Shown: in pieces, positions 206 through 45,849 of the stretch | Layout: every line of letters begins with the position of its first letter | Numbering within the stretch: the first letter of the stretch is position 1 | Source of the DNA: Celeribacter naphthalenivorans | GTDB lineage: Bacteria > Pseudomonadota > Alphaproteobacteria > Rhodobacterales > Rhodobacteraceae | Direction: 5' to 3' | DNA length: 64,000 nucleotides | Assembly (NCBI RefSeq): GCF_020524585.1 | Contig: NZ_JAIVLK010000007.1 | Coordinates: 248,001-312,000, forward strand | Notes under the pieces: model-generated | The model's database searches: none | What the model was told of the DNA's origin: nothing | Seen by the model: only the letters and a program-made list of their open reading frames with translations | Position numbers and translations under genes: made by a program

Positions 206-706
206 GTTTCCTCCCATGGGTCTTGGTGGTCTTGGCCAGACATCTGGCCTGACTGTGTGATCTTTCCCCCGCCTGACATCACGCCGAGGCAGGTCGGATC
301 GGCGATCTCAAACCGGCATCCATTCAAAAGTCATGCCTCGGTTATGCCTTTTGACCCGAGCGCCTCTCCCTTTTGCAGAGCATGACAAATTCACACGTAA
401 ATTCATATAAGAAATTTGATTTTATATAAGAACTCTCAAAATGGCCTTGTAATTCAGTAAAAACAGCCACCCCAGCGCGATGCGCTGAGTGAGATGAGCA
501 GAGATTTCTTCTGACGCGAAATATGGATGAGGCGAATCAATGGAGAGAATCCGACAGTTTGAGACTCTTGAGACCGAACATCTGAAGCCGAACATGGAGC
601 CCTATCAGACACAGCCAAAAGCACCGCATCCCGGCAATGTTGACAGTTTCCTTCATTGTGAGATAAAAACAGATTTCAAATTCAGTATGATTTGTGGAGC
701 GCAAGA
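206..706. other. Divergent intergenic region, SDR / MFS exporter
   Basis: About 500 bp without a convincing gene. The stretch around 390-440 is very AT-rich, with two near copies of a TATATAAGAA-like string, and is a plausible promoter zone. A weak copy of the TCYCA-N5-TGRGA repeat lies at 649-663. Short open frames here have no ribosome site or recognisable protein features. Confidence 0.5.
649..663. promoter_or_regulatory. Weak candidate operator (TCYCA-N5-TGRGA)
   Basis: Reads TCCTTCATTGTGAGA. The right half TGAGA is exact and the left half matches three of five. It is centred about 51 bp upstream of the MFS start. It is the westernmost and one of the weaker members of the repeat family described in the findings. 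Confidence 0.3.
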
Positions 707-2335
707 GTGGCAGAGACATCGTCTTCCCTGCGCCTGTTCAAACACCGACCCTTTCTCGTCTATTGGCTCGCTGGGTTCTCGGCGAATTTCGGATGGCAAA
801 TTCAACTTGTCGGTGCGTCATGGCTCATGACCTCTCTGGGCGGCACGCCTGAACTGGTCGCCATGGTTCAAACCGTCGTGGCGCTGCCGGTCATGTTGTT
901 GTCGCTTCCGGGCGGGGCGCTCTCCGATCTCATTGGCCAGCGCACCCTGACGCTCTGGGCACAAAGCTTTCTGCTCGTGGTTTCCGCGCTCTTGGCGCTT
1001 GGGGCCTTTTTCGGCCTGCTCACCCCGACGCTTTTGCTGATCTGCACCTTTCTGATCGGCTCAGGCCGCGCGCTCTACTATCCCGGCTGGCAGGCGACCG
1101 TGTTCGAATTCGTGCCCAAAAGCGAAGTCACCGCCGCCGTCGCCCTCAACTCCAGCAATCTCAACATTGCCCGAAGCCTCGGCCCCGCGATCGGCGGCGT
1201 GATCGTGGCCGCCGCCGGGGCTTTCGTGGCCTTTGTCGTGAATGCCTTGAGCAATCTCAGCGTGATCTTTGTGGCGAGCCGCTGGCCCAAAGCCCGCCCC
1301 TCCCAGGACCTTCCCCCCGAACCCCTCGGGCGCGCCATCATGGCCGGGCTGCGCTATGTCACCCTCTCTCCGGTGCTGATCAAGCTCGGCCTGCGCTCCG
1401 TGGTGTTCAACATCTCCGCGATTGCCGTGCTCGCCATGCTGCCGCTGATTGCCCGTGATCAGCTTGACAGTGGCGCGGGGACATTCGGTGTTTTGCTCGC
1501 CGCTTTTGGTGTGGGTGCGGTGGCCGGATCACTTTATATCGACCGGCTGAGACGCCTTATTCCGCTTGAGAAATTCCTCGCTTTTGGCTTTTTGTGCTTT
1601 GCCTCGGGCACTGCGATTTTGGGGGTGAGCACCTGGACCGCATTGTCCATCTTTGGCGCCCTCATTGCTGGGGCCGCTTGGAGCTTTGTGCAGGTCACAC
1701 TCTACTCCATCGTCCAGATTTCTTCGCCCCGTTGGGTGCTCAGCCGCACCATCGCGATTTACCAAATCTTCGTGTTTGGTGGCAACGCCATCGGCAGCCT
1801 GATCTGGGGCGATCTCGCCGGCAACTCCGGGACGGAATTCACCATGCTGGTCGCGGCCGGCATCATGGCCGCGGGGGCCTTGCTCGGAACCGTGTTCCGG
1901 ATCAACGAAGTCGACGGCAGCCGCGTTGACATCTCCGGCTCTTGGGTCGCGCCGAAACCAGCGCTCGATATGGCGATGAAAAGCGGTCCGGTTCTGACCA
2001 CCATCACCTACCGCATTCGCGAAATCGATGCCCCCGTGTTCGTTGATGCCATGCGCGAAAAGCGCAGGAACCGCATTCGTGATGGCGCCATGCGCTGGAC
2101 CCTTTCCCGCGACATTCTCGACCCGGAACTTTGGTACGAACGCTTCAAAGTGGCGACCTGGGCCGATGCCCAGAGGCTACACGCGCGCCGCACAACCGAA
2201 AGCACAGAACTTATTGAATTTATTCGCGGTTTGCATCAGGGAGACCAGGCACCGGAGGTTCATTACGAGTTGGTGCGTGATCCTGGCGTTTCCTTGAACA
2301 TCCGCGATGCAACCGTGACCTCAAACGTGCCCTAG
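707..2335 (+). CDS. MFS transporter, EntS-like (MFS_3 type) with C-terminal soluble domain
   Basis: Predicted major-facilitator exporter of the MFS_3/enterobactin-exporter type, acting in the inner membrane. From the GTG start it is 542 aa. About the first 415 residues are strongly hydrophobic and can form roughly 12 helices, with an intracellular loop containing DLIGQR, a version of the MFS loop 2-3 motif. The last ~110 residues (from about TTITYRIREID) are soluble and resemble a small dimeric alpha/beta-barrel domain, an arrangement known in this family. GTG at 707 is chosen because GGAG sits 7 nt upstream; TTG at 692 in the same frame would add five residues. It converges on the LysR gene with only 20 bp between them. 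The substrate is unknown; export of a P450 substrate or product is possible from position but unproven. Confidence 0.85.
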   Translation: MAETSSSLRLFKHRPFLVYWLAGFSANFGWQIQLVGASWLMTSLGGTPELVAMVQTVVALPVMLLSLPGGALSDLIGQRTLTLWAQSFLLVVSALLALGAFFGLLTPTLLLICTFLIGSGRALYYPGWQATVFEFVPKSEVTAAVALNSSNLNIARSLGPAIGGVIVAAAGAFVAFVVNALSNLSVIFVASRWPKARPSQDLPPEPLGRAIMAGLRYVTLSPVLIKLGLRSVVFNISAIAVLAMLPLIARDQLDSGAGTFGVLLAAFGVGAVAGSLYIDRLRRLIPLEKFLAFGFLCFASGTAILGVSTWTALSIFGALIAGAAWSFVQVTLYSIVQISSPRWVLSRTIAIYQIFVFGGNAIGSLIWGDLAGNSGTEFTMLVAAGIMAAGALLGTVFRINEVDGSRVDISGSWVAPKPALDMAMKSGPVLTTITYRIREIDAPVFVDAMREKRRNRIRDGAMRWTLSRDILDPELWYERFKVATWADAQRLHARRTTESTELIEFIRGLHQGDQAPEVHYELVRDPGVSLNIRDATVTSNVP

Positions 2336-2355
2336 GGTTTAGCGTCAGAGGCCGC

Positions 2356-6417: not shown

Positions 6418-6432
6418 TCCCATATAATGAAA
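6418..6432. promoter_or_regulatory. Operator TCYCA-N5-TGRGA upstream of TRAP operon
   Basis: Reads TCCCATATAATGAAA: the left half is exact and the right half is 4/5. Centred about 152 bp upstream of the dctP start in an AT-rich promoter-like stretch just after the reductase gene. Nearly identical to the copy at 36828-36842. Confidence 0.65.
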
Positions 6433-6576
6433 CTTTATGATGACACGTGGTGCATTCATTGTTACCGTACCCCGTGCATAGGAGGATGCCCGGTCCCTGA
6501 GCAGAAGTTCAGGGCCTCAAACGACACATGGCCAATCTCACAAAGGGAGAACGAGATGACCAAAAGGGAGGAAAAC

Positions 6577-7656
6577 ATGACCAAGACGACCCAATTCTGC
6601 CGCTCTGCGCTGGCGCTCTGCACAGGCGCTGCACTTCTGACGGCGACATCCGCGGCGGCTGAGCTGAACAAAGTGCAGCTCGAGGTGATCGTCGGCAATC
6701 ACACGGATACCTTCACGACAGAGTACACCATGCCGTTCTTCAACGAACAGCTTGCTGAGCGGTCGGACGGACGCGTGAGTGCAAACGCAAAACCCTATAC
6801 CGAGCTTGGCCTGAGCGGGTTTGAGATGATGGATCTGCTCAAACTTGGCACCAATGACATCAGCTGGGGCGTGCCGGGCTATATCTCCGGGGACAGCCCG
6901 ATTGCCGAAGGGCTCGATCTGCCGGGTCTCTCCGCCGATCTGGACGTGATCAAAGAGGCGCAGATCGCGTATCGCTCGATCCTCGATCATGAATACAACA
7001 GCAAATTCAACGCTCGGCTGATGATGATGTACACCCAGCCGAAGCTTCAGGCCTATTGCCGCCTCAGCGAAGACGAGATCGCGAATTTCTCACTCGACAG
7101 CCTCAAGGGCAAGAAAACCCGCGTGCATGCCACATCCTTCGCCGACTTTGCCGAAGCGGCGGGGATGATCCCGGTAACGATGGCCTTTGCGGATGTGGTT
7201 CCGGCGCTTGAACGCGGCGTGTTGGATTGTGCGATCTCCTCGCCGAATGCGGCCTATGGCTATAAATGGGGTCAGGTCACCAATGCGGTGGTCGATTTGC
7301 CCGCCGGTTTCGCGACCCAGGTCGTGGTCATGAACAGTGACACATGGAATGACCTGAACGAAGAAACCCAAGGCTTTCTCACCGAACAGTTTGCCGATCT
7401 CGAGGCACGCATGGCAGAGCACACGGTCGTAAGCACCACGCAAAGTGCGCAGTGTCTGCACGATGGCCCCTGCCCCTTGGGCGATCCTGCGGGTATGGCG
7501 CTTCTTCAGCTGAATGCGGAAGACGAAGCCAAGCTGAACACCGCAATCGAAGAGACCGTTCTGGCCCGTTGGGGCGAGCGGTGCGGGACGGACTGCTCCA
7601 AAACCTGGAACGAGACGATGACGCCCATCGTCGGCATGACCATTCCGGTCGAGTGA
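6577..7656 (+). CDS. dctP: TRAP transporter substrate-binding protein (DctP family)
   Basis: 359-aa periplasmic solute receptor of a TRAP uptake system; the symbol is used in the family sense. ATG at 6577 follows AAAGGGAGGAAAAC and starts a clear Sec signal peptide (polar Lys/Arg start, hydrophobic SALALCTGAALLTA, then SAAA just before the mature chain). The mature protein has typical DctP features, including SLKGKKTRVHA and the central GVLDCAISSPNAAYGYKWG region that contacts the ligand. The C-terminal third has clustered cysteines (CLHDGPC and CGTDC) that could form disulfides, unusual for DctP. An in-frame ATG at 6556 has a poorer site. Dicarboxylate or similar organic acid ligand is likely but not determinable. 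Confidence 0.95.
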   Translation: MTKTTQFCRSALALCTGAALLTATSAAAELNKVQLEVIVGNHTDTFTTEYTMPFFNEQLAERSDGRVSANAKPYTELGLSGFEMMDLLKLGTNDISWGVPGYISGDSPIAEGLDLPGLSADLDVIKEAQIAYRSILDHEYNSKFNARLMMMYTQPKLQAYCRLSEDEIANFSLDSLKGKKTRVHATSFADFAEAAGMIPVTMAFADVVPALERGVLDCAISSPNAAYGYKWGQVTNAVVDLPAGFATQVVVMNSDTWNDLNEETQGFLTEQFADLEARMAEHTVVSTTQSAQCLHDGPCPLGDPAGMALLQLNAEDEAKLNTAIEETVLARWGERCGTDCSKTWNETMTPIVGMTIPVE

Positions 7657-7666
7657 TTGGATGTTC

Positions 7667-7698
7667 GTTCTGCCCGCGACCTCGGACGCGGGCAGAAC
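7667..7698 (+). other. Perfect 12-bp mRNA hairpin between dctP and dctQ
   Basis: GTTCTGCCCGCG pairs exactly with CGCGGGCAGAAC across an 8-nt loop. There is no T-run, so it is probably not a terminator. Such hairpins after binding-protein genes commonly protect the upstream message and give excess receptor over membrane subunits. Confidence 0.75.
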
Positions 7699-7721
7699 GG
7701 CCTCTCTGAATAGGTTTTGTC

Positions 7722-8330: not shown

Positions 8331-8332
8331 CC

Positions 8333-14276: not shown

Positions 14277-14291
14277 TCCCGAAATATGAGA
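14277..14291. promoter_or_regulatory. Operator TCYCA-N5-TGRGA, ABC importer
   Basis: Reads TCCCGAAATATGAGA: left half 4/5, right half exact. About 112 bp upstream of the small leader ORF of the ATPase-permease operon. Confidence 0.6.
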
Positions 14292-21068: not shown

Positions 21069-21083
21069 TCCCACAATATGCAA
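21069..21083. promoter_or_regulatory. Operator TCYCA-N5-TGRGA, GMC-ALDH side
   Basis: Reads TCCCACAATATGCAA: left half exact, right half TGCAA 3/5. Confidence 0.5.
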
Positions 21084-21169: not shown

Positions 21170-21184
21170 TCCCGAATAATGGGA
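21170..21184. promoter_or_regulatory. Operator TCYCA-N5-TGRGA, SDR operon side
   Basis: Reads TCCCGAATAATGGGA: right half exact (TGGGA), left half 4/5. Centred 126 bp upstream of the SDR start. Confidence 0.6.
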
Positions 21185-22082: not shown

Positions 22083-22236
22083 CAGTCTCCTCCCCGAGGG
22101 CGAGGGGTGGCCGCGGTCATCCCTCGCCCCGATAAGGCTTGCATGACCCACGTGGAGATGCATCCTTGACCGATCCATACCCCTCTCGGGCAAACTTGCT
22201 CCGACGGGCGCATTCAAATGTCGGGATTTCCACTCT

Positions 22237-23010: not shown

Positions 23011-23021
23011 CGGAGATCTTC

Positions 23022-23615: not shown

Positions 23616-23666
23616 GGGCCGGCGAGAGGTCCAAGACCGCAATTTATGAGAAAGCCAAGGACCAAG

Positions 23667-31341: not shown

Positions 31342-31356
31342 TGTCATAGTTTGAGA
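31342..31356. promoter_or_regulatory. Operator TCYCA-N5-TGRGA, CoA-ligase operon side
   Basis: Reads TGTCATAGTTTGAGA: right half exact, left half 4/5. About 83 bp upstream of the ligase start. Confidence 0.55.
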
Positions 31357-31458
31357 TTTTATACAATAATTTGAGAAAAGTTTTTATGCGAGATTTTCTT
31401 TTGTAATTCGAAAAATAATGATGATCTCACACGTGATGATGAACTATAAAATCAAGAG

Positions 31459-31473
31459 TCCCACTTTGTGGCA
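31459..31473. promoter_or_regulatory. Operator TCYCA-N5-TGRGA, CMD side
   Basis: Reads TCCCACTTTGTGGCA: left half exact, right half 4/5. Centred only 27 bp upstream of the start codon, so a bound protein would block transcription or sit at the promoter's downstream edge, which argues for repression. Confidence 0.6.
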
Positions 31474-31943: not shown

Positions 31944-33404
31944 TTAGACGCCAGCCATGCAGATGTATTTCACTTCCATGTAGTCTTCGATCCCGTAGAA
32001 CGAGCCTTCGCGACCGATCCCGGATTCCTTGATCCCGCCAAACGGCACGGCCTCATTGGCCATGAGGCCGATATTGACCCCGACCATGCCGGTCTCAAGC
32101 GCCTCAGCGACACGCCAGACCCGACCGATGTCGCGGCTGTAGAAATACGAGGCCAGACCGAATTCGGTGTCATTGGCCGCAGCGATCAGATCGTCCTCAT
32201 CCTTGAAGCGGAAAATCGAGGCAAGCGGACCAAAGGTTTCTTCGCGCGCGACTTTCATCGTGGCATTGGCCTCGCCAATCACTGTCGGCTCAAAGAAGCT
32301 GCGTCCCAGAGCGTGACGCTGACCACCGGCCAGAAGTTTCGCACCTTTTTCAATCGCGTCGGCGATATGTTCTTCGGTCTTCTGAACGCCACCCATATCG
32401 TGCACAGGCCCGAAGGTCGTGCCCGGCTCGAGGCCGTTGCCGACTTTGAGATCAGCCACTTTCGCGAGGAACTTCTCGACGAATTCATCATAGATGCTGT
32501 CGTGAAGGTAAAAGCGATTGGTGCCAACACAGGCCTGACCCGAGTTGCGGAATTTCGACCCCATGGCGCCCGCCACAGCGGCATCGACATCGGCGTCATC
32601 AAACACGATGAAGGGCGCGTTTCCACCCAGTTCCAGCGCAAGCTTTTTGACCGTCCCGGCGCATTGCTGCATCAGGATTTGCCCCACGCGGGTCGAGCCG
32701 GTGAAGGAGATTTTGCGCACGATGGGGTTGGAGGTGAACTCCGCCCCGATCTCACGCGAGCCGCCGGTCACGACGCTGAACAGACCTTTCGGAATGCCCG
32801 CACGATCCGCCAACTCCGCCAGAGCGAAGGCGGTGAAGGGCGTCGTGCTGGCCGGACGCACCACCATGGCGCAGCCCGCCGCCAAAGCGGCCGCGACCTT
32901 GCGGGTGATGATCGTGTTCGGGAAGTTCCACGGCGTGATTGCGGCACAGACCCCGATCGGCTGTTTGATCGTCACGATGCGACGGTCCTGCGCCGGTGTC
33001 GGGATGGTCTCGCCATAGGTGCGCCGAGCCTCCTCGGCGAACCATTCGATGAATTGCGCACCCGCCACAACTTCGCTCTTGGCCTCAGCCAAAGGCTTGC
33101 CCTGCTCCGAAGTCAGGATCAACGCCAGATCGTCGGCATTCTCGATGATCAGATCGAACCAGCGGCGGAGCAGACGCCCGCGATCCTTCGCGAGCGTCTT
33201 TTTCCATTGTGCCTGAGCCACCTCTGCCGCCTCGATCGCGCGCCGCGCCTCGGCTGCGCCCATCTGCGGGACGGTGCCCACGGTTTCCCCGGTTGCGGGG
33301 TTGATCACGGTCAGGGTCGCGCCAGTATCGGCGTCCACCCAGTCCCCGTTCACATAGGCCTGCATCCGCAGCAGGTTCGCGTCTTTCAGCGGCAAAGTGG
33401 TCAT
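31944..33404 (-). CDS. Aldehyde dehydrogenase, succinate-semialdehyde dehydrogenase-like (copy 2)
   Basis: 486 aa of the GabD-like branch. Motifs are PWNFPN, FTGSTRVGQIL, LELGGNAPFIVFDDAD with the general-base Glu, and the catalytic Cys in NSGQACVGTNRF. The C-terminus contains PFGGIKESGIGREG. It lies 12 bp downstream of the ThDP-enzyme gene, so it probably oxidises the aldehyde or semialdehyde produced there. It differs clearly from the ALDH at 17695. Confidence 0.95.
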   Translation of the reverse strand: MTTLPLKDANLLRMQAYVNGDWVDADTGATLTVINPATGETVGTVPQMGAAEARRAIEAAEVAQAQWKKTLAKDRGRLLRRWFDLIIENADDLALILTSEQGKPLAEAKSEVVAGAQFIEWFAEEARRTYGETIPTPAQDRRIVTIKQPIGVCAAITPWNFPNTIITRKVAAALAAGCAMVVRPASTTPFTAFALAELADRAGIPKGLFSVVTGGSREIGAEFTSNPIVRKISFTGSTRVGQILMQQCAGTVKKLALELGGNAPFIVFDDADVDAAVAGAMGSKFRNSGQACVGTNRFYLHDSIYDEFVEKFLAKVADLKVGNGLEPGTTFGPVHDMGGVQKTEEHIADAIEKGAKLLAGGQRHALGRSFFEPTVIGEANATMKVAREETFGPLASIFRFKDEDDLIAAANDTEFGLASYFYSRDIGRVWRVAEALETGMVGVNIGLMANEAVPFGGIKESGIGREGSFYGIEDYMEVKYICMAGV

Positions 33405-33416
33405 GACGTCACCCTT

Positions 33417-35246
33417 TTACTTCGTGTCGTCGGCTTGGAAATCGGGCATTTCAAACCCATGGTGATCCCCAGCACCCGCAATCGGACCGGCGGTCCAGGT
33501 CTCATTGAAGTCCTTCGGATAGGGATACCAGGCCGAGCGGTATTGCGGCGTTTCGATCTCGGTCGCGATGGAGAAGACGGTCGGCAGACCGCTTTCGATG
33601 GCTTTCTCAAAGGCCGGTTTGAAGTCTTCGGCTTTCTCGATGCGAATGCCGACACAGCCCATGCCCTCGGCCATCATCGCGAAATCCGGCCCCCAAAGTT
33701 CGTCCTCGCCTTTGCGGCGGGTGTCACAGAGGGATTCACGACCGTAGATCTTGAGCATCGCTTCGCGTTCGATCTGAAGCGAGCGGTTGTCGAAGACCAC
33801 GGCAATGACCGGAAGCTTTTGTTCGACAGCGGTCAGCATCACGGTCGAGCGCATGATGAAGGCACCGTCGCCCAAAAGGGCAATCGCCGGGCGACCTTTG
33901 GACGCCATGGAGCCGCCGATGGCCGCGGACGCAGACCAACCCATGCGGTGCATAAAGCTCGAGTGGAACACATTGCGCGAGGAGGCACGCACAAACGGCG
34001 GGCCGTAGCTCAGCATGTGGCCGGTGTCGAAGGTGATGGTCGCATCGGGGCATTTCTCGGCCACGACCGCGCTCACATCTTCACAGACACGGGCATAGTG
34101 CAGCGGCGAAATATTCGAGGTGCGCAGCGGCTCGACGGCCTCATCAAAGGCTTTACGTTCTTTTTCGAGTACCGCGATCCAGTCGGCGCGCTCGGACACA
34201 CCCGCCGCTTTCGACGCTTTGGTCAGCGCCTCAAGCGCCAGGCGCGCATCGGAATTGAGCGCCACTTCGGTCGGGTAAGCACGGCCAAGCTCGTTTTCGT
34301 CGATGTCGACATGGATCAGCTTGGTGTTGTTCGGAATGTCGAACAGGGTCCAGCCACCGGAGTCGATGTCGGTGAAGTGCGTGCCAATACCGATCACCAA
34401 ATCGGAATTGCGCGCCATGTGGTTGCCGTGCAGCGTACCTGCGCGACCCACCACGCCTGCGGACAGACGGTGGTTTTCAGGGAAAGCAGCCTTACCGGCG
34501 GAGGTGGCGACCACCGGGGTGCCGGTGGCTTCGGCAAATTCCACGAGAGCGTCATGCGCGCCGGAGTTGGCGATCCCGGAGCCAAAGACCACGAGCGGAC
34601 GCTCGGCCTTTTTCAAAAGCTCGACGGCGCGGTCGATACCGGCCGGATCGGCCGCCGGACGATGCACCGCCATGTAGGGGCGCGGATCGGGCAGGCTGTC
34701 CTCGGGGATCAGCGCGTGCTGAATGTCGAACGGAATGGCCATGACGACCGGACCCGGGCGGCCTGTCAGTGCGGTTTTATAAGCGCGCAGGAACATCTCG
34801 ATGCAGGTGTCCGGACGCGTTGCCATGACCGCCTTTTTACAGATGCCGCGCATCACACCGGCGTAATCCTCGGGACCGGCGCGGTAGGCCTCTTCGATGC
34901 CGCCACGGTCGAACCAATGGGTCGCACCGACACCGGCCAGCACGAGCATACCGATGGATTCATAGAAGGCAGTGGCAACCGCCGGCATCACGTTGGCGTT
35001 GCCCGGCCCCACCGAAGTGGTCACGATCGGCAGAGGCGCACCGCGCTTGTGGCGCCAGTAACCATCGGCCAGCTCGACCGCCTGGTCTTCCATCTTGGCG
35101 CCGATGCATTCGATGTTGGTTTCATACACCAAAGCATCGAGCAGGCCCCAGTTGCCGTGACCGTTCACGCCAAAGGCAAATTCCGTGCCCATCTGGTCCA
35201 GCAGGCGCGCAATGCCCTGCGACACGGTGATCATTTTCTTTTCCAT
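33417..35246 (-). CDS. Thiamine-diphosphate-dependent enzyme, acetolactate synthase-like
   Basis: 609 aa with the three TPP-enzyme domains. The N-terminal PYR domain carries the catalytic Glu in AKMEDQAVELADGYWR, the central domain is at VFGSGIANSGAHDAL, and the C-terminal PP domain has the ThDP/Mg motif GDGAF...VVFDNRS near residue 450. Relatives include acetolactate synthase, 2-hydroxyacyl-CoA lyase, decarboxylases, and C-C hydrolases such as cyclohexane-1,2-dione hydrolase and IolD. Its position between an MmgE/PrpD gene and an aldehyde dehydrogenase suggests cleavage or decarboxylation giving an aldehyde. AAAGGACG precedes the ATG. The specific reaction is not determinable. Confidence 0.93.
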   Translation of the reverse strand: MEKKMITVSQGIARLLDQMGTEFAFGVNGHGNWGLLDALVYETNIECIGAKMEDQAVELADGYWRHKRGAPLPIVTTSVGPGNANVMPAVATAFYESIGMLVLAGVGATHWFDRGGIEEAYRAGPEDYAGVMRGICKKAVMATRPDTCIEMFLRAYKTALTGRPGPVVMAIPFDIQHALIPEDSLPDPRPYMAVHRPAADPAGIDRAVELLKKAERPLVVFGSGIANSGAHDALVEFAEATGTPVVATSAGKAAFPENHRLSAGVVGRAGTLHGNHMARNSDLVIGIGTHFTDIDSGGWTLFDIPNNTKLIHVDIDENELGRAYPTEVALNSDARLALEALTKASKAAGVSERADWIAVLEKERKAFDEAVEPLRTSNISPLHYARVCEDVSAVVAEKCPDATITFDTGHMLSYGPPFVRASSRNVFHSSFMHRMGWSASAAIGGSMASKGRPAIALLGDGAFIMRSTVMLTAVEQKLPVIAVVFDNRSLQIEREAMLKIYGRESLCDTRRKGEDELWGPDFAMMAEGMGCVGIRIEKAEDFKPAFEKAIESGLPTVFSIATEIETPQYRSAWYPYPKDFNETWTAGPIAGAGDHHGFEMPDFQADDTK

Positions 35247-35308
35247 GATGTCGTCCTTTTGATTTCCCTACGTGTGTGGCCGCGCCTCCCGCGCGCACCG
35301 CTCACGTC

Positions 35309-36676
35309 TCAGTCATTGAAAATTGTGGTGCAGGTCGGCAGAGCGTCCGCCGAGGGCAGCGTCTCGATGCGTTGCAACAGATCGAACAGATCCCGCGCCT
35401 CATCTTCGCCATGCGTGAACTGGGTACAGTCGCGGAATTTGCCCCAAAGCTCCTCTGTCGTCAGAGGTTCGGCGGCATAGCCCGGAATGGTCGCAATCGG
35501 CCCGCTGTCGAGCACTTCGCCGCTCTTGAGCGTCATCACGACGCGCTCGGTGGGCGAGAACACGGGATCGCGCGGATCTTCTTCGTCGATCGGAATGAGC
35601 GTCACTTTCGGATAAAAGGCCTGCATATCGTCGCGCAGAACCACCTCATCCTTGATCTCCGGGGGCCCGAATTTTTTGAGGATCACGGCGGCGGCGATGC
35701 CAAAGGGCCCGCTGAACTGCGCCTGATACATGTTTTTCGGCTGATGATGCACGAGGACGGTGGTCTGGCCACGGCCCATATGCACCTCGACCTTTTCGAC
35801 ATCTTCGGGATCGATGTCGCGGCCTTCGAGCATTTTCAAAGTGCCCTCGAAAGAGCGATGCGAGAAGAAGCAGCTCGGGTGCATTTTAAACTGAAGCTTC
35901 TGACGCGGCAGATACCAGTCCTTGCCGAGTTGACAGGGGCTTTCGCGATCCGGCGTACCGCCGGAGGAAAACGCCGTCAGATAGCCCTGCGCATTTTCAA
36001 GCGCGTCCGGCCCACCGGTCATGCCCGCATCCGCAAGACGTGCCGCGATCAGACCGTCCCGCGCAGCTTTGCCGGAGTGGTAGCCCTTGGTCATCGAGCC
36101 GAAGTTGGAGAACAACCCGCCCGCGTGGCTGGCCGAAATGGCAATCGCCATCTGGGCTTTTTCCGCCGAAAGCTTGCGCAACACAGAACAGGCGGCGGCG
36201 GTCGCGACCGGACCCAAAAGCGCCGTCGGGTGCCAGCCTGCCTTGTGGTAATATTTGTTGCGGCGCCACACCTCGCACCAGACTTCATAGCCTGCGACAA
36301 ACGCCGTCACCATATCCTCGCCGGTCGAGCCCAGCAGCTCAGCCTCCGCGAGAATGGCCGGAATGATCACACCGCCCGGGTGGCCCGATGCGGTTTGACA
36401 ACCGTAATCCAGCGCATGCGCGATGGCCCCGGCCAAAAGTGCGGCAGAGGGTCCATCGACCTTTTGCGCGGACAGGCAGGCGCGGGCTTCTTGGACACCC
36501 GAAAGGTCAACAAGAGTCTCGCGCAACACGTCGGACAGAGGCAAATCGACCCCCGCCATGATCACACCGACAGTATCGGTAAAAGCGTCGCGCACTGTGG
36601 GCAACAACTCGGACGGCAAGTCTTCATACCGAAGATCGGCAAGAAAACGGCCAATATCAGCGGTCAATGCAACCAT
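35309..36676 (-). CDS. MmgE/PrpD family protein (copy 2), altered active-site segment
   Basis: 455 aa. The family segment normally reading D-[FY]-D-D is DYGCQTASGHPGGVIIPA here, so the second and third acidic positions are Gly-Cys, while the His-Pro remains. The rest, including GYEVWCEV, a WHPTALLGPVATAAA helix and the KFRDCTQF tail, is typical. The start at 36676 (MVALTAD) follows GGGAGAG; an in-frame extension of 24 residues upstream lacks a ribosome site. First gene of the operon with the ThDP enzyme and ALDH. Confidence 0.92.
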   Translation of the reverse strand: MVALTADIGRFLADLRYEDLPSELLPTVRDAFTDTVGVIMAGVDLPLSDVLRETLVDLSGVQEARACLSAQKVDGPSAALLAGAIAHALDYGCQTASGHPGGVIIPAILAEAELLGSTGEDMVTAFVAGYEVWCEVWRRNKYYHKAGWHPTALLGPVATAAACSVLRKLSAEKAQMAIAISASHAGGLFSNFGSMTKGYHSGKAARDGLIAARLADAGMTGGPDALENAQGYLTAFSSGGTPDRESPCQLGKDWYLPRQKLQFKMHPSCFFSHRSFEGTLKMLEGRDIDPEDVEKVEVHMGRGQTTVLVHHQPKNMYQAQFSGPFGIAAAVILKKFGPPEIKDEVVLRDDMQAFYPKVTLIPIDEEDPRDPVFSPTERVVMTLKSGEVLDSGPIATIPGYAAEPLTTEELWGKFRDCTQFTHGEDEARDLFDLLQRIETLPSADALPTCTTIFND

Positions 36677-36827
36677 TTTGGCTTCTCTCCCTCGTACGTT
36701 TTTAGCGTGTGGACATTGCTGTCCGGCACGAAGGGACCGACCACTCAAACACCGACCCGGTCGCGTCAGTCACGCGTCCCGTTTGGCCCGGCGCCAAAAT
36801 GCTTATCTCCTCCTGCTTTAAATCTAA

Positions 36828-36842
36828 TCCCATATAATGACA
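36828..36842. promoter_or_regulatory. Operator TCYCA-N5-TGRGA, MmgE copy 2 operon
   Basis: Reads TCCCATATAATGACA: left half exact, right half 4/5. It shares its first 13 bases with the dctP operator at 6418. About 159 bp upstream of the start. Confidence 0.65.
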
Positions 36843-37058: not shown

Positions 37059-37107
37059 TAGAGTTATAGATCAGAAATCGAACCCAAAGAGCGGGAGGAG
37101 CTTGGGG

Positions 37108-37773: not shown

Positions 37774-37797
37774 GCCTCAAAGCAAAGGACCACAGCG

Positions 37798-39231
37798 ATG
37801 AAACACTATGATGTTGTCGTCATCGGCGGAGGCCCCGGAGGCCTTGCCGCCGCCGCCCGCGCCGCAGAGACCGGGGCTTCGGTCGCTCTGCTGGAAACCC
37901 TCGACTGGCTGGGTGGCAATGCCAGCCTGTCGACGGGCTATCTGGCCTGCGTCGGCACGCAATTGCAAAAAGACTTGGGCATTGCGGACAGCGTCACCGA
38001 TTTTATGGCGGATTGCGCGGCGCAATATGAGCGCGAAAAGCACAATGGCCCGCTGATCTGGGACCCTGTCCTGACCGAAGCTTACGCGAAAGAGAGCGCC
38101 AAGGCCCTCGATACGCTCCTCGAGCTGGGGGTCGACATCCAACGCGTGCTCCCGAAACCTTCGCAGCACCGCCACGATCGGATGCACGCGATCGACGACC
38201 CCGCCGAGATTGGCCGGGCCTATACCAAGCGACTGGATGCCCTGGGCGTCGACGTGCATTTCGAGACCAAAGCCCTGCGCCTGATCACTCAGGACGGGCG
38301 CGTCACCGGCGTCACGGCGGAGCATGCCGACGGCAGCCCCCGTAGTTTCGGAGCGACCAAAGGCGTTATCCTCACCACCGGCGGCTATCAGGGCAATTAC
38401 GAATTGCGCAGACGGCATCAACGCGAGGATGAGATCAACGGCTATCTCAGCGGCGTTGCGACCTGTGGTGGCATGGGCCACGTGGCGGGCGCGGCGCTTG
38501 GGGCCGATCTGATCAATATGGATTACATCCAACCCATGGTGGTGATCCCCTCCCTTCTGGCCGAGGATGCCATCGCCGTGAACCGTGCCGGTGAGCGATT
38601 CCACGACGAAACCGGCAAATATTCCGGCCGCGTCGCCGCGCTTGCGGCGCAGGACGAGGGGTTTGGCTATTACATCATTGATGCCGAGACGCGCGCCCTG
38701 AAAGCGGATTTGGTCGAGAAGATGCCGGAACCCGCCGTGACCTGTGATACGCTGGACGCACTTGCGCATCGGATTGGCGTGGACGCAGGTAACCTCACGG
38801 ACACCGTGGCCTCATGGAACGCCTTTCTGAAGAGCGACTTGGAGAAAGACCCGCTCTTCGGGCGCATGATCCTGCCGAAAGAGCGCCGCGCGCTTGGGAC
38901 GCCGCCCTACTCAGCGCTGCGCATGGTGCGCAGCACGACGTTCACCTGGGGTGGCATGGCGGTCACAACAGATATGCAGGTGGTCAACGTGCTGGGCGAG
39001 CCGATCCCCGGCCTTTTCGCCGCAGGCGACGCCATCGGTGGAATCAATGTCGTGTCGGGCATGGGGGGCGTGCATATCGCGGCCGCCTTGGCGCTTGGCG
39101 GTGTGGCGGGCGAAAAAGCCGTGACCGGACCGCAAGCCGCGCCCCATTTGACCGCGCCCGCCCAAGCACGGGATTTCGTGACAACACAAACCCCGCGCAT
39201 GGCGCTTTTCGATCTTGAGGATCGCGGCTGA
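37798..39231 (+). CDS. FAD-dependent dehydrogenase, fumarate reductase/3-ketosteroid dehydrogenase-like
   Basis: 477 aa flavoprotein of the FAD_binding_2 family. The FAD Rossmann motif GGGPGGLAAA is at residues 11-20, LTTGGYQGN marks the second FAD contact, and the C-terminal flavin-binding segment reads LFAAGDAIGGINVVSGMGG. This branch performs alpha,beta-desaturation or reduction of cyclic ketones and carboxylates (KstD, tricarballylate dehydrogenase, fumarate reductase). No haem or signal peptide is seen, so it is cytoplasmic. Pairing with NIPSNAP suggests introduction of a double bond into a ring or acid before hydration. The substrate is unknown. Confidence 0.92.
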   Translation: MKHYDVVVIGGGPGGLAAAARAAETGASVALLETLDWLGGNASLSTGYLACVGTQLQKDLGIADSVTDFMADCAAQYEREKHNGPLIWDPVLTEAYAKESAKALDTLLELGVDIQRVLPKPSQHRHDRMHAIDDPAEIGRAYTKRLDALGVDVHFETKALRLITQDGRVTGVTAEHADGSPRSFGATKGVILTTGGYQGNYELRRRHQREDEINGYLSGVATCGGMGHVAGAALGADLINMDYIQPMVVIPSLLAEDAIAVNRAGERFHDETGKYSGRVAALAAQDEGFGYYIIDAETRALKADLVEKMPEPAVTCDTLDALAHRIGVDAGNLTDTVASWNAFLKSDLEKDPLFGRMILPKERRALGTPPYSALRMVRSTTFTWGGMAVTTDMQVVNVLGEPIPGLFAAGDAIGGINVVSGMGGVHIAAALALGGVAGEKAVTGPQAAPHLTAPAQARDFVTTQTPRMALFDLEDRG

Positions 39232-40097: not shown

Positions 40098-40112
40098 TCT
40101 CATTATATGAGA
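40098..40112. promoter_or_regulatory. Operator TCYCA-N5-TGRGA, enoyl-CoA hydratase side (best copy)
   Basis: Reads TCTCATTATATGAGA, a 6+6 perfect inverted repeat around TAT. Centred 41 bp upstream of the hydratase start, within an AT-rich promoter-like stretch. Confidence 0.8.
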
Positions 40113-40192: not shown

Positions 40193-40207
40193 TCTCACAT
40201 TGGGAGA
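40193..40207. promoter_or_regulatory. Operator TCYCA-N5-TGRGA, MmgE copy 3 side
   Basis: Reads TCTCACATTGGGAGA: left half exact, right half 4/5. Centred 58 bp upstream of the MmgE start. Confidence 0.65.
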
Positions 40208-40257: not shown

Positions 40258-41667
40258 ATGACATCATCACCGCAAGAGGCAGGCTTTGCCCTCGAAGAGG
40301 CTGTCGCCGAGTTTGTCGTCAACTTTCAATATAAGGACATCGACACGGGCTCCATGCCCGCCGTCAAGGCCATCCTGAAAGACCAACTCGCGCTTCAGGT
40401 CGGCGCCGTCGATCTGCCCTGGTCCATCGAGGCCCGCAATTTCCTCGACGCCCCGCGCCCCGGCAAGGCCTCTGTCGTGACCGAACACACCACTATTGCG
40501 CCCGCCGACGCGGCCTATATCAACGCGACCTACGGCCACGGGTTCGAATATGACGATGTCGCCAGCAACGGCCATCCGGGGTGCTGCGTCGTCCCCACCG
40601 CTTTGGCGGTCGGCGAAGAGGTCGGTGCGACGATCGGCGAGACGATCGAGGCGATGGTCGCGGGCTATGAGGTCTTTGTGCGGGTCGGACGACTGGCCGC
40701 GCCCGATCTTGTGAACAACGGCTGGCACGCCCATGCCGTGCTCGCCAATTTCGGCGCCGCTGCCGTCGCCGCCAAGCTGTACAAGCTACCGAAAGACAAG
40801 GTCGTCCATGCGCTGGCCATCGCTTTGAGCCACGCGTCTGGCACCACTGAATACACGAAAAGCGGCGGCTCGATCAAACGCGTGCACGCCGGGATCGCGG
40901 TGCGCAACGGCATCGAATCCGTCAAACTCGCCATGGCTGGGATCACCGGTCCGAAGAAATTCCTGACCGGGCCGAAAGGCTTTTTCCGGAATTTCATCAA
41001 ACGGGACGCCGTCGAGGCCGATGCCAAACTGGCCTTTGCCGCAGGTGAGCCGCTGCGCGTCTCCGGCACTTGGCTGAAACCCTATTGCTGCTGTGGCGCG
41101 CACCATCCCTATATCGATGCCATGGCTGCGCGTTCCGGTCGTGTGGCGGAGATCGAGGCCGTCACCGCACGGGTTCAGGCCATGACGCGCACGCTGGCAG
41201 ACAATCCGCAGGCGCAACAAAACGGCACGACCAACATCGAGGAATTGCAATTCAGCCTTGCCCTCGAAATGGGCCTCGCCGCCCTTGGGAAAGGCAACGG
41301 ATATGCCACCCACCGTGCATTTCTCGATGGGAATCTCGACATTGGGCCCACCTCCGACGTGGTCGATTTTGCGCGCCGCATCACGGTGGAACATGCGCCC
41401 GATCTGGACGCGGCCTATCCGTTCAACTTCGTGGGCGATTTGCGGATCACCTATGGCGACGGCACGGTTGAAGAGGTTTTCATGGATGGCGCCAAAGGCA
41501 TGCCCAACCATCCGTTCACCGATGCAGAACATCGTGAAAAGCTCAATGAGCTGACCTTTGGTGTTCTCGGCGAAGCTCAGGCCACCGCCCTCTTCGACCT
41601 GATCGAAGCCTTCGACCCGAGTGCCCCCGTGACCGCTCTCACCGATCTGGTGAAACCCTCGGCCTAA
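40258..41667 (+). CDS. MmgE/PrpD family protein (copy 3)
   Basis: 469 aa. The active-site segment is GHGFEYDDVASNGHPGCCVVPTALA, keeping the Asp-Asp and His-Pro; GYEVFVRVGRLA and WHAHAVLANFGAAAVAAKL follow as in the family. A KPYCCCGAHH stretch near residue 275, with three consecutive Cys where copy 1 has KPYPVCGIANT, is unusual. AAGGGAGGTTCAC precedes the start. Monocistronic, followed by the iclR-type gene with its own operator. The enzyme class is as for the other copies; the three share only moderate similarity and are not recent duplicates. Confidence 0.92.
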   Translation: MTSSPQEAGFALEEAVAEFVVNFQYKDIDTGSMPAVKAILKDQLALQVGAVDLPWSIEARNFLDAPRPGKASVVTEHTTIAPADAAYINATYGHGFEYDDVASNGHPGCCVVPTALAVGEEVGATIGETIEAMVAGYEVFVRVGRLAAPDLVNNGWHAHAVLANFGAAAVAAKLYKLPKDKVVHALAIALSHASGTTEYTKSGGSIKRVHAGIAVRNGIESVKLAMAGITGPKKFLTGPKGFFRNFIKRDAVEADAKLAFAAGEPLRVSGTWLKPYCCCGAHHPYIDAMAARSGRVAEIEAVTARVQAMTRTLADNPQAQQNGTTNIEELQFSLALEMGLAALGKGNGYATHRAFLDGNLDIGPTSDVVDFARRITVEHAPDLDAAYPFNFVGDLRITYGDGTVEEVFMDGAKGMPNHPFTDAEHREKLNELTFGVLGEAQATALFDLIEAFDPSAPVTALTDLVKPSA

Positions 41668-41742: not shown

Positions 41743-41757
41743 TCCAATATAATGATA
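41743..41757. promoter_or_regulatory. Operator TCYCA-N5-TGRGA upstream of iclR-type gene
   Basis: Reads TCCAATATAATGATA: 4/5 in each half. Centred 82 bp upstream of the regulator start; it would allow autoregulation. Confidence 0.5.
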
Positions 41758-41831: not shown

Positions 41832-42689
41832 ATGACCAAGACACCTGAGAGCACCGCCACCGTCCCCACCAAAGAGGCTGAGGAAAAAACGCGCGGCGGC
41901 GCGATGGGGGCAAACAGTCTGGTACGCATGCTGAGCCTGCTCGACATGTTCACGCCGTCCTCGCCCTCTTGGTCCAGCGACGCGCTGATCAGCGCCTTGG
42001 GCACATCGCGGTCTACGGGCTATCGCTACATCAAGGCCCTCGCCGACATCGGTCTTTTGACGCCGGTGGCCGAAGGCAATTACATGCTCGGGCCGCGCAT
42101 CATTGAGCTCGACCTTCAAATCCGCAACTGCGATCCGCTTTATAACGCCGCCGGTCCCCTGTTGAAAAAACTTGTGGAACAAACACAGTTTTCGAGCATC
42201 GCCTGCGCGCTCTATAGTGGCTCCGTGCTTTGTGTCCGCGAAGAGCTGTCGCCCACCAGCCCGTCGCGCATGCTGTCCCGTGGCCAGAAACGCCCGCTGT
42301 TTCGCGGCGCGGCGTCGAAAATCATTCTGGCGCATCTCGGCCCGCACCAGCTGCGCAGCATTTTCAACAAGCACAAAGACACCATCGCCACCTCCGGCCT
42401 CGGCGCCGATTGGGCCAGCTTTCGCTCGAACCTGAGCGACATTCGTCGCGCCGGTCATACGGTCACTGTAGGCGAGTTCAATTCAGGCGTCATCGGCGTG
42501 GCCGCCCCCGTGCTCAACCACGCGGGTCAAATTCTCGGCAGCGTCGGCATTGCCGGACCGGAAGAGAAATTCGACCGCGCGGAGCTCGATCGGATTGTAG
42601 AACTGGTGATGGATGCCGGGCAGAAAGTCACGGAACGTGTGGGGCTTGTCGCCTCCGGGACGGATCGCCCGGCCCGCTCCGTCGGATAA
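41832..42689 (+). CDS. IclR-family transcriptional regulator (proposed cluster regulator)
   Basis: 285 aa. A 30-residue polar N-terminus precedes the winged helix-turn-helix (SLVRMLSLLDMFT...STGYRYIKALADIGLL, about residues 28-85) and the IclR effector-binding GAF-like domain (from about 100, with MLSRGQKRPLFRGAASKIILA and GVIGVAAPVLNHAGQILGSVGIAG). IclR proteins bind palindromic operators, and this is the only regulator in the window whose family fits the 15-bp inverted repeats, including one upstream of itself. The ATG at 41832 has no visible Shine-Dalgarno sequence, and neither does an in-frame ATG about 24 codons later, suggesting weak or leaderless translation. Confidence 0.94.
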   Translation: MTKTPESTATVPTKEAEEKTRGGAMGANSLVRMLSLLDMFTPSSPSWSSDALISALGTSRSTGYRYIKALADIGLLTPVAEGNYMLGPRIIELDLQIRNCDPLYNAAGPLLKKLVEQTQFSSIACALYSGSVLCVREELSPTSPSRMLSRGQKRPLFRGAASKIILAHLGPHQLRSIFNKHKDTIATSGLGADWASFRSNLSDIRRAGHTVTVGEFNSGVIGVAAPVLNHAGQILGSVGIAGPEEKFDRAELDRIVELVMDAGQKVTERVGLVASGTDRPARSVG

Positions 42690-43570: not shown

Positions 43571-43585
43571 TCTTATTATATAGGA
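43571..43585. promoter_or_regulatory. Candidate operator, atypical SDR side
   Basis: Reads TCTTATTATATAGGA: 4/5 in the left half and 3/5 in the right. It shares the central TTATATA with the best copy at 40098. About 85 bp upstream of the SDR start. Confidence 0.45.
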
Positions 43586-43751: not shown

Positions 43752-43766
43752 TCCTACTAATTGAGA
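43752..43766. promoter_or_regulatory. Operator TCYCA-N5-TGRGA, acyl-CoA dehydrogenase side
   Basis: Reads TCCTACTAATTGAGA: right half exact, left half 4/5. About 101 bp upstream of the start. Confidence 0.55.
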
Positions 43767-43859
43767 TTACATACATGTATAAACCTCGTGAGTTCGCTCG
43801 ATGAGCCTGTGCGGTACGCCGCCACAGGATCGTTGTTGAAATACTAGGAGGAGGAATGA

Positions 43860-45020
43860 ATGGACTTTTCATTCACAGAAGAACAACAGCTGTTTGCTGA
43901 CAGCGTCCGTCGCTTTGCCGAGGACAAACTCAAAGACGGCGCTCTGAAACGTGCGCATTCCAAGGAATACCCTTGGGAAGTCGCCAAGATGCTCTCGGAG
44001 CAAGGCCTGCTCGGCATCACCCTCAAGGAAGAGGACGGCGGCATTGGTGGCACGTTGATGGATGCCGTCATCGCCATTGAACAAATGTCCCTCGTCTGCC
44101 CGAAAAGCGCGGACATCATTCAGGCGGGCAACTTTGGCGCGATCCGCACCTTTGCCGAATACGCCAATGATGAGCAAAAAGAGAAATGGCTGCCGGGGCT
44201 TTTGTCCGGCGAGATTGTCATTTCTCTGGGCATGTCAGAACCCGACGCGGGCTCTGCGGCGACGGACCTTAAAACCACCGCGAAAGAAGACGGCGACCAT
44301 TATGTGATCAAAGGCCAGAAAGTGTTCGGCACGCACAGCCGTGACGCCTCGCTCTTTCTGATCTACTGCCGCTTTGGCCCCGGCCTCGACGGCATCGGCT
44401 CGCTGATCATCGAGCGCGGCACCGAAGGGTTTACCGTCGGCGAACCCGCCGAATTCATGAGCGGCGAAGAATGGTGCCCGCTCTATTTCGACAATGTGCG
44501 CGTGCCGAAAGAAAACCTTTTGCTCGGGCCGGGCGGCTTCAAACGTCAGATCGCCGCGTTCAATGCCGAGCGCATCGGCAACACCGCCCGCTCCCTTGCG
44601 ATCGGTCGTCACGCCTATAATCTGGCCCGCGACTACGTGATGGAACGCTCGCAATTCGGTCGTCCGCTTTGTGAATTCCAGGGTCTGCAATGGAAATTCG
44701 CCGATATGGCGATGAAACTCGAATCCGCGCAGCTTCTGCTCTACAAAGCCGCAGTCGGCGCCGACAAAGGCCTGCCTTCGGCCTATGACACGACGCTGGC
44801 GAAAATGGCCTGTAACCAGATCGGTTTCGAAGTGGCCTGCGAGGCGGTGCAATGCATGGGCGGCACGGGCTATACCCGCGAAACGCTTGCTGAATATTGC
44901 ATGCTGCGCACCAAAGGCTGGATGATCGCGGGCGGTTCCGTCGAGATGATGAAAAACCGCATGGCGGAATTCATCTTTGACCGCCGCTTTAGCCAGCGCC
45001 CGCCGAAACCGGCGAATTAA
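43860..45020 (+). CDS. Acyl-CoA dehydrogenase
   Basis: 386 aa flavoenzyme introducing an alpha,beta double bond into an acyl-CoA. The N-terminal helical domain starts MDFSFTEEQQLFADSVRRFA; the central FAD-contact region has SLGMSEPDAGSAATDL; the C-terminal helical domain has RSQFGRPLCEFQGLQWKFADM and QCMGGTGYTRE. The residue at the usual catalytic Glu site is hard to place by eye. AGGAGGAGGA precedes the start. Followed by a VOC paralogue 71 bp downstream in the same operon. Confidence 0.95.
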   Translation: MDFSFTEEQQLFADSVRRFAEDKLKDGALKRAHSKEYPWEVAKMLSEQGLLGITLKEEDGGIGGTLMDAVIAIEQMSLVCPKSADIIQAGNFGAIRTFAEYANDEQKEKWLPGLLSGEIVISLGMSEPDAGSAATDLKTTAKEDGDHYVIKGQKVFGTHSRDASLFLIYCRFGPGLDGIGSLIIERGTEGFTVGEPAEFMSGEEWCPLYFDNVRVPKENLLLGPGGFKRQIAAFNAERIGNTARSLAIGRHAYNLARDYVMERSQFGRPLCEFQGLQWKFADMAMKLESAQLLLYKAAVGADKGLPSAYDTTLAKMACNQIGFEVACEAVQCMGGTGYTRETLAEYCMLRTKGWMIAGGSVEMMKNRMAEFIFDRRFSQRPPKPAN

Positions 45021-45091
45021 GACGTGAAATCGATTGTCCCCTCTGGCACGGTCCTGAGGGGGCAATCTAAATGGGTTTGGAGGAGCTCACC

Positions 45092-45679
45092 ATGACGATC
45101 ACAGCTATGCCCCCGCGTTTTCTGGGAGACCGCGTTCAGCTTGCCTATGTCGTGCGCGACCTAGATGCGGCGCTGTCCTATTGGACGGATGTCATGAAGG
45201 TCGGGCCTTTTGTGGTCATCGAAAGCGCGAAAGGCAATCGCAAGATCATGCATCGTGGCGAGGAGACCGCGCTCGATTTCACCCTCGCCTTCGCCTATAT
45301 GGGCGAGACGCAGATCGAGGTCATCACCCCGAAAAATGATGCCCCCTCCTCCTATAAAGAGTTCCTCGACAGTGGCCGCGAGGGCCTCCACCATGTCGCC
45401 TATTGGCCGGAAGACATGCCAGGTGCCTGTTCGCATTTGGAGCGCCACGGATTCAAACCTGTCACCGCCGTCCTCGCCCCGGATGGGGATCGCTCGGTCG
45501 TCTATTACGACGCGCCCTCTGCGGTCGGCGCGATGGTCGAATTGTTGCCGATGAACGCTGAGCGTATGGCCTACTACAGTCGCATCCAAAAGCTGAGCGC
45601 CACATGGGATGGGGTGACGCGGCCTGTACGCCGCTTTGCGGATCGCGCGGAATTTCTGGCATCTGACGAGGGGCTGTAA
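45092..45679 (+). CDS. VOC-family protein, methylmalonyl-CoA epimerase-like (copy 2)
   Basis: 195 aa, clearly paralogous to the VOC gene at 23022: both share LDAAL.(F/Y)W, VGPFVVIE, the metal positions and the C-terminal PVRRFADRAEFLASD tail. The predicted metal ligands are Gln16, Glu76, His100 or His101, and Glu150. ATG 45092 follows GGAGGAGCTCACC; an ATG seven codons upstream lacks such spacing. It probably epimerises or isomerises an acyl-CoA acted on by the dehydrogenase encoded before it. Confidence 0.88.
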   Translation: MTITAMPPRFLGDRVQLAYVVRDLDAALSYWTDVMKVGPFVVIESAKGNRKIMHRGEETALDFTLAFAYMGETQIEVITPKNDAPSSYKEFLDSGREGLHHVAYWPEDMPGACSHLERHGFKPVTAVLAPDGDRSVVYYDAPSAVGAMVELLPMNAERMAYYSRIQKLSATWDGVTRPVRRFADRAEFLASDEGL

Positions 45680-45834
45680 GCCCTTCGGCCTGCCGCAAGC
45701 GCCACCCCTCTCACAGCAGAACGCCAAACGAACTGTCGTGTAGCACGCACAGTTTGAACGCGCGCGACCGATCCAGATCACGCTCCAACCTGCCCATCCG
45801 ATCACGAGAGCCCCCATCATTAATATTTTACAAA

Positions 45835-45849
45835 TCCCATATTGTGAGA
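45835..45849. promoter_or_regulatory. Operator TCYCA-N5-TGRGA upstream of tctCBA
   Basis: Reads TCCCATATTGTGAGA: both halves exact. Centred 62 bp upstream of the tctC start in an AT-rich stretch. Confidence 0.75.

What the first reader, a model, noticed from the sequence alone, without database searches (positions are those of the whole stretch)
649..45849. One 15-bp inverted repeat (TCYCA-N5-TGRGA) marks nearly every promoter across about 45 kb
Seen directly: copies at 6418 (TCCCATATAATGAAA), 14277, 21069, 21170, 31342, 31459, 36828, 37044 (TCCCAATAAGTGAGA), 40098 (TCTCATTATATGAGA), 40193, 41743, 43571, 43752 and 45835 (TCCCATATTGTGAGA), with weaker ones at 649, 14418 and 14459. I found all of them in intergenic DNA, 27-220 bp upstream of start codons apart from the weak 14418 and 14459 sites, and none upstream of the P450, thi or cob genes. 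They connect three transporters, many dehydrogenases, CoA enzymes and an IclR gene that has a copy of its own. IclR proteins use palindromic operators. Inference: a single IclR-controlled catabolic regulon.
Basis: partly seen in the sequence, partly recalled or inferred. Interest (0 to 1): 0.88.

Follow-up and report, generated by a model that had tools for sequence, protein, structure and literature searches.

The report
One operator switches a catabolic island
A 45-kb stretch of genes for taking up and breaking down an unknown compound carries the same short DNA docking site at most of its promoters, and that site travels with one IclR-type regulator in distant bacteria, which points to a single switch for the whole island.

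Summary
The repeat is real and very probably is the operator of the IclR protein encoded at 41832-42689. In intergenic DNA of 1-49129 there are 13 matches with at most one mismatch; 0.55 are expected. I infer 19 transcription units; 16 carry a site, the LysR, P450 and hydrolase/AraC units do not. A profile search of the whole genome gave 15 places at E 10 or less, all on the window's contig. Orthologous promoters in Paracoccus, Sphingobium and Rhizobium keep the site. With equal flanks, the motif occurs at 23 of 47 loci of this IclR clade but at 1 of 21 loci of a second, neighbouring IclR's homologues. The likely mechanism is repression relieved by a pathway compound; promoter geometry only partly supports it, and binding, effector and substrate are untested. 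The operator fits the published group-1 IclR core but has C, not T, next to it. The regulon is unusually large for this family.

The parts
41832..42689 (+). IclR-family regulator (IclR-A), the proposed repressor
   Evidence: Pfam IclR_C 78.3 bits and HTH_IclR 25.8 bits, both above cut-off; motif tracks its orthologues
41743..41757 (+). operator in the iclR promoter, overlapping a TAGACA-18-TATAAT promoter
   Evidence: matrix 14.1; promoter fit
649..663 (+). operator, MFS transporter (start about 707)
   Evidence: matrix 14.0; between TTGACA and TAAAAA
6418..6432 (+). operator, TRAP transporter operon 6556-9634
   Evidence: matrix 16.5
14277..14291 (-). operator, ABC transporter ATPase-permease(-MmgE/PrpD) operon 14062-9766
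   Evidence: matrix 22.3; TTGACA at offset 16
   Evidence: matrix 20.9; TTGACA at offset 16; start
21069..21083 (-). operator, GMC oxidoreductase-aldehyde dehydrogenase unit 20858-17695
   Evidence: matrix 17.3
21170..21184 (+). operator, SDR-SDR-glyoxalase-thioesterase unit 21303-24050
   Evidence: matrix 17.1; offset 16
31342..31356 (-). operator, CoA ligase-SDR-thiolase-MaoC operon 31266-26272
   Evidence: matrix 14.6
31362..31376 (-). second, tandem operator 20 bp from 31342
   Evidence: matrix 12.2
31459..31473 (+). operator, carboxymuconolactone decarboxylase-like gene 31493
   Evidence: matrix 18.0
36828..36842 (-). operator, MmgE/PrpD-TPP enzyme-aldehyde dehydrogenase operon 36748-31944
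   Evidence: matrix 18.6; kept in L039, L040, L043, L042
37044..37058 (+). operator, NIPSNAP-FAD dehydrogenase unit 37106-39231
   Evidence: matrix 15.4; offset 15
40098..40112 (-). operator, enoyl-CoA hydratase (start 40064)
   Evidence: matrix 19.4; start
40193..40207 (+). operator, MmgE/PrpD 40258-41667
   Evidence: matrix 11.8; offset 15
43571..43585 (-). operator, SDR 43493-42732
   Evidence: matrix 14.7; kept in L039, L043
43752..43766 (+). operator, acyl-CoA dehydrogenase-glyoxalase unit 43860-45679
   Evidence: matrix 18.6; kept in L039, L040
45835..45849 (+). operator, tripartite tricarboxylate transporter operon 45904-48949
   Evidence: matrix 24.7; TTTACA-17-TATAAG around it
46203..46217 (+). 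operator-like site inside tctC, role unknown
   Evidence: matrix 23.2; also in the genome-wide list
31944..36748 (-). core operon: MmgE/PrpD, TPP enzyme, aldehyde dehydrogenase
   Evidence: Pfam; 75.9-84.4% identical in L039, L040, L043 for these three genes

Best explanation
The inverted repeat is the operator of the IclR protein at 41832-42689. A dimer (or tetramer, at the tandem pair 31342/31362) binds the 15-21 bp palindrome ATCYCR-N5-YGRGAT at 16 promoters of the island, among them its own, and at further transporter promoters elsewhere on the same contig. At several promoters the operator lies just downstream of the -35 box, so bound protein would block RNA polymerase; a substrate or intermediate of the pathway, sensed by the IclR_C domain, would release it and switch on uptake (MFS, TRAP, ABC, tripartite tricarboxylate) and breakdown (dehydrogenases, MmgE/PrpD, TPP enzyme, CoA ligase, beta-oxidation enzymes) together. 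Shown by computation: the motif, its placement, its conservation and its association with this IclR clade. Inferred: binding, repression, effector, substrate.
For: Enrichment 13 against 0.55. A palindrome search without the motif as input, over the intergenic DNA of 52 iclR-relative loci from other organisms, ranks TATCC-N9, ATCCC-N7 and TCCCG/TCCCA-N5 among its top six (29 vs 2.3, 45 vs 5.9, 46 vs 10.9, 27 vs 4.3). Matrix from those loci finds the window sites and a matrix from 16 window sites finds 98 intergenic sites in 48 loci, column-permuted matrices 2.6 on average, largest of 200: 27. Own-genome background: 0 intergenic sites at score 12 in 62,235 bases of C1/C2; whole genome 15 places at E 10 or less, all on C7. 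Promoters of orthologous genes keep the site, those of LysR/P450/FdR lack it in both organisms. Matched controls: 23 of 47 IclR-A-clade loci against 1 of 21 IclR-B loci. Published group-1 IclR core YCRY-W3-RYGR coincides with the centre of this motif, and tandem spacing of 18-22 nt is described (PMC8222616). In 7 of 16 sites the best promoter in gene direction has its -35 box 15-16 bp before the site centre, 1 of 16 in the opposite direction.
Against: No binding, expression or effector data. The site centre falls in the spacer of the best-scoring promoter as often in the opposite direction (9 of 16) as in gene direction (8 of 16), and in other Proteobacteria the -35 signal at offset 16 is weak and not direction-specific, so repression by this geometry is only suggestive; IclR proteins can also activate. 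18 of 52 loci lack a site of score 6 or more next to iclR. Loci of IclR relatives only 34-41% identical also carry the motif (8 of 10 at score 10), so the motif is not private to close orthologues. A second IclR lies next to the island.
Confidence: 0.72

Rival explanations
1. The sites are bound by the second IclR gene (IclR-B, C7:243575-244381), or shared between both IclR proteins.
For: IclR-B sits between a TRAP operon and a MmgE/PrpD-aldehyde dehydrogenase-SDR block, with a site (C7:243370, 18.1) in the divergent promoter.
Against: Only 20% identical to IclR-A with a different recognition-helix sequence; 1 of 21 loci of IclR-B homologues has a site of score 10, 0 of 21 at 12, against 23 of 47 (score 10) for the IclR-A clade with equal flanks.
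Confidence: 0.08
2. IclR-A binds the sites but acts as an activator or in a dual way, not as a simple repressor.
For: The family includes activators and dual regulators (PMC8222616 section 4); the promoter geometry is not decisive.
Against: Seven sites lie right behind a -35 box in gene direction and the iclR site overlaps a good -10 box; both are usual places for repression (established knowledge).
Confidence: 0.17
3. The repeat is not an operator but a by-product of AT-rich promoter DNA or of a -10-like TATAAT string.
For: Several sites contain TATAAT; the unguided palindrome search of the window alone ranks AAAAA-N2 first and this motif only second and third.
Against: The conserved letters are C and G in fixed mirror positions, absent from 62 kb of intergenic DNA of other contigs at score 12, and the same palindrome appears in GC-rich Actinobacteria next to iclR.
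Confidence: 0.03

Closest known systems
IclR-family regulators with group-1 palindromes (Suvorova and Gelfand 2021, PMC8222616)
   Same: Same domain pair; same centre of the operator, YCRY-W3-RYGR; autoregulation; tandem sites about 20 bp apart; control of transport plus CoA and dehydrogenase enzymes.
   Different: The base next to the core is C (83% in the aligned sites) where the four main published variants (TGT, GTT, WTT, NGT) all have T; my outer triplet is ATC. Regulon of 16 units against 'one or two adjacent operons' stated as general there. The supplementary tables of that paper were not seen.
PcaR/PcaU/PobR group of IclR regulators (TIGR02431)
   Same: Best NCBIfam match of IclR-A (87.9 bits).
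   Different: Far below the curated cut-off of 284.75 bits; the PcaU and PobR motifs in Table 1 of PMC8222616 have GTYCGAT half-sites, not ATCYCR.
PheR of Sphingobium sp. SHPJ-2 (PMC13273656)
   Same: IclR-family repressor of a catabolic operon released by the substrate (passages seen).
   Different: Reported essential motif GCAACG, one operon described in the passages seen.

Membership tests
IclR family (regulator) | N-terminal HTH_IclR and C-terminal IclR_C domains | tested here: met
   25.8 bits (cut-off 22) and 78.3 bits (cut-off 24)
IclR group-1 operator | mirror core YCRY-W3-RYGR | tested here: met
   matrix columns
IclR group-1 operator, the four main published variants | T directly outside the core (TGT-, GTT-, WTT-, NGT-) | tested here: not met
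   C in 83%, T in 4% (training pattern favoured C); unguided search agrees
IclR-family regulon | own gene plus one or two adjacent operons (general statement in PMC8222616) | tested here: not met
   sites at 16 of 19 inferred units
IclR-family regulon | site in the regulator's own promoter | tested here: met
   41743; 34 of 52 other loci at score 6
IclR-family regulon | protein binds the operator and responds to an effector | not testable with these tools
   needs protein and DNA in vitro
PcaR/PcaU/PobR (TIGR02431) | score above the curated cut-off | tested here: not met
   87.9 against 284.75 bits

The most novel reading that the evidence does not exclude
A portable switch: one IclR clade with an ATC-11-GAT operator has been carried between Proteobacteria and Actinobacteria, and in this genome the operator has been planted at 16 promoters of an acquired island and at distant TRAP transporters on the same contig, so that seven transporter systems and a whole pathway obey one regulator.
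Probability: 0.4. Interest if true: 0.6.

Novelty: new variant of a known kind. Interest (0 to 1): 0.45.

Why it matters
It gives a testable operator code for a clade of IclR proteins for which the searches named here showed no described motif, and with it a way to find the genes that belong to the same unknown catabolic pathway in any genome that carries the regulator. The size of the regulon is a counter-example to the usual picture of IclR proteins as local switches.

Tried and rejected
Whole-window counts with two mismatches show no enrichment. An unsupervised EM motif fit on all intergenic DNA drifted to plain AT-richness and was discarded. A scan of genome contigs with the single protein found no relative; the five-sequence alignment did. 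The TPP enzyme as bait in 148 related genomes gave, apart from the own copy, nothing above 34% identity among the listed matches, so the island's core is not a family trait; IclR-A at E 1e-45 occurs in 4 of 295 family genomes, own included, the other three at 38-40%. I meant the ten plasmid loci with IclR proteins of 34-41% identity as negative controls; they carry the motif (8 of 10 at score 10) and were reclassified as members of a wider clade. The HTH print-out in that script found nothing and is not used. The direction test of promoter geometry is mixed. Substrate: the TPP enzyme matches BbmA, glyoxylate carboligase, acetolactate synthase and, lower, cyclohexane-1,2-dione hydrolase, which does not settle the reaction; a literature search for BbmA gave nothing usable. 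Rows left out: L009 and L001 (own copies) from control sets; L090; L074 from the matched-flank count (47 of 48 loci); site 31362 from the window-trained matrix. All thresholds are mine, and the gene masks are heuristic; they mark 14664 and 45835 as coding because of false early starts (corrected).

Full report
What was checked. Pfam hits give, from left to right: MFS transporter, LysR, P450-ferredoxin-reductase, TRAP transporter, MmgE/PrpD and an ABC transporter with sugar-type binding protein, SDRs, aldehyde dehydrogenase and GMC oxidoreductase, glyoxalase, thioesterase, hydrolase, AraC, a CoA ligase-SDR-thiolase-MaoC operon, a carboxymuconolactone decarboxylase-like gene, an MmgE/PrpD-TPP enzyme-aldehyde dehydrogenase operon, NIPSNAP and FAD dehydrogenase, enoyl-CoA hydratase, MmgE/PrpD, IclR, SDR, acyl-CoA dehydrogenase, a tripartite tricarboxylate transporter, then thi and corrinoid genes.

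Counted blindly with two mismatches the pattern is at chance (72 against 70.1). In intergenic DNA of 1-49129, with at most one mismatch, there are 13 against a shuffle mean of 0.55 (largest of 500: 4), and 2 in 44,006 coding bases.

Independent recovery. Relatives of IclR-A were found on plasmids (Paracoccus versutus 64% identical, Sinorhizobium meliloti 50%, Caballeronia 49%, Sphingobium 43%) and, with the alignment of five, at 48 loci of public genomes in Proteobacteria and Actinobacteria. In the intergenic DNA of these 52 loci a search over all 5-base palindromic half-sites and spacings 0-12 ranks first TATCC-N9 (29 observed, 2.25 expected) and second ATCCC-N7 (45, 5.85), with TCCCG-N5 (46, 10.85) and TCCCA-N5 (27, 4.3) also in the top six; together they spell TATCCCR-N5-YGGGATA. 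In the window alone, with far less sequence, this search puts an A-run palindrome first and ATCTC-N7 and TCTCA-N5 next. At score 9 its intergenic density is 15 in 6,717 bases in 1-49129, 6 in 37,630 in the other fetched C7 stretches, 2 in 62,235 in C1/C2 and 2 in 23,252 in control loci. In reverse, a matrix from 16 window sites finds at score 12, in intergenic DNA, 59 sites in 104,397 bases of proteobacterial loci (19 of 35 loci), 18 in 35,216 of actinobacterial loci (11 of 13), 0 in 62,235 of C1/C2 and 1 in 23,252 of control loci; at score 10 it finds 98 sites in the 48 loci, column-permuted matrices 2.6 on average, largest of 200: 27.

Genome-wide. A sequence profile from the 16 sites gives 15 places at E 10 or less (150 of 235 first-look candidates were scored), 13 distinct sites, all on C7: 12 in the window, including 46203 which was not in the profile, and C7:153913. 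Five of the 16 training sites fall below that limit. The simple pattern with one mismatch gives 74 places genome-wide against 23 for the reversed control (list cut by the tool). On C7 outside the window, intergenic sites of score 12 or more are at 153639, 153913, 159280, 159469, 240166 and 243370, next to three TRAP systems, an aldehyde dehydrogenase, a GMC oxidoreductase and a second IclR.

Orthologous promoters. P. versutus pBEN carries most of the island (TPP enzyme 84%, CoA ligase 79%, acyl-CoA dehydrogenase 92%, P450 82% identical), Sphingobium pEP1 a rearranged core (TPP 77%), Rhizobium sp. Root708 the TPP-MmgE-iclR block. At score 7 the window matrix finds sites at 9 of 14 promoters or gene starts tested in P. 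versutus, 6 of 9 in Sphingobium, 5 of 5 in Rhizobium and 4 of 5 in S. meliloti; the misses are LysR, P450, FdR, dctM and the ABC permease (the last two not first genes of their operons), thiC, one SDR and a VOC gene, and paoA. LysR and P450 lack a site in the window as well. The iclR site itself is weaker: TCCAATA-type in the window, Rhizobium and S. meliloti, TTCAATA in P. versutus, which may mean mild autoregulation (inference).

Which regulator. Sites of score 6 or more lie within -450..+60 of the iclR match in 34 of 52 loci. A second IclR (IclR-B), 20% identical, lies left of the window; among 21 loci of its homologues 1 has a site of score 10 and none of score 12, while 23 of 47 IclR-A-clade loci trimmed to similar flanks have one. 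Three further family genomes with IclR proteins 38-40% identical to IclR-A all have one (3 of 3), and one of 7 loci of distant paralogues of the own genome does. Ten plasmid loci with 34-41% identity, chosen as controls, have it in 8 of 10: the code belongs to a wider clade than close orthologues.

Mechanism. In gene direction the best sigma-70-like promoter overlapping the site has its -35 box 15-16 bp before the site centre in 7 of 16 cases (649, 14277, 14664, 21170, 37044, 40193, 45835), in the opposite direction in 1 of 16; mean scores 7.2 against 5.2 (Wilcoxon p 0.018). The looser measure, centre within the spacer, does not differ (8 against 9 of 16). Averaged over sites, -35 likeness at offset 16 is third of 48 offsets in the window (the two higher ones lie inside the motif); it is the highest in the Actinobacteria, but there in both directions, and weak in the other Proteobacteria. 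Steric repression is therefore the likely but not proven mode. The tandem pair 31342/31362 has the 20-bp spacing described for IclR tetramers (PMC8222616, sections read).

Compared with what is known. Suvorova and Gelfand (PMC8222616; abstract, sections 4 and 12 and found passages seen, supplements not) describe group-1 motifs GKTYCRYW3-4RYGRAMC with four main variants, each with T next to the YCRY core. Counted from the centre, this motif has W at 0 and 1, Y at 2, R at 3, C at 4, Y at 5, as in group 1, then C at 6 (83%), T at 7 (99%) and A at 8 (64%). They state that IclR proteins generally regulate their own gene and one or two adjacent operons. I therefore call this a variant operator and an unusually large regulon of a known kind. 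Searches for the motif strings with IclR listed 5 and 2 papers, none of whose titles concerns this motif; I did not open them.

What remains open. Substrate, effector and sign of regulation. The gene set (GMC and SDR dehydrogenases, TPP enzyme with an aldehyde dehydrogenase, CoA ligase, beta-oxidation enzymes) would suit opening of an alicyclic ketone followed by beta-oxidation, but this is inference.

Noticed in passing
54585-54812 (+): Cobalamin riboswitch (97.5 bits) upstream of a CbiM-like gene.
   Followed up: no
49130-51100 (+) and L040:1412-3259: thiC lies beside the TPP-enzyme island both here and on the Sphingobium plasmid (70% identical); not found in the fetched P. versutus stretch. 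Upstream of thiC a CTGAGAGG string looks like a thiamine box by eye, but no Rfam match reached its threshold.
   Followed up: partly
46203-46217: A very high-scoring operator-like site inside the tctC reading frame, about 300 bp after its start.
   Followed up: partly
G000:C7:243575-244381 (L103:3575-4381): A second, distant IclR gene beside a TRAP operon and an MmgE/PrpD-aldehyde dehydrogenase-SDR block, just left of the window.
   Followed up: partly
G000:C7:349145 and 349165: Two operator-like sites 20 bp apart about 1.5-2.2 kb from another IclR paralogue (C7:346971-347696).
   Followed up: no
41743; L043:9930; L042:22687; L039 before 31560: The iclR promoters of four species share a weakened site with CCAATA or TCAATA in place of the full arm.
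   Followed up: no
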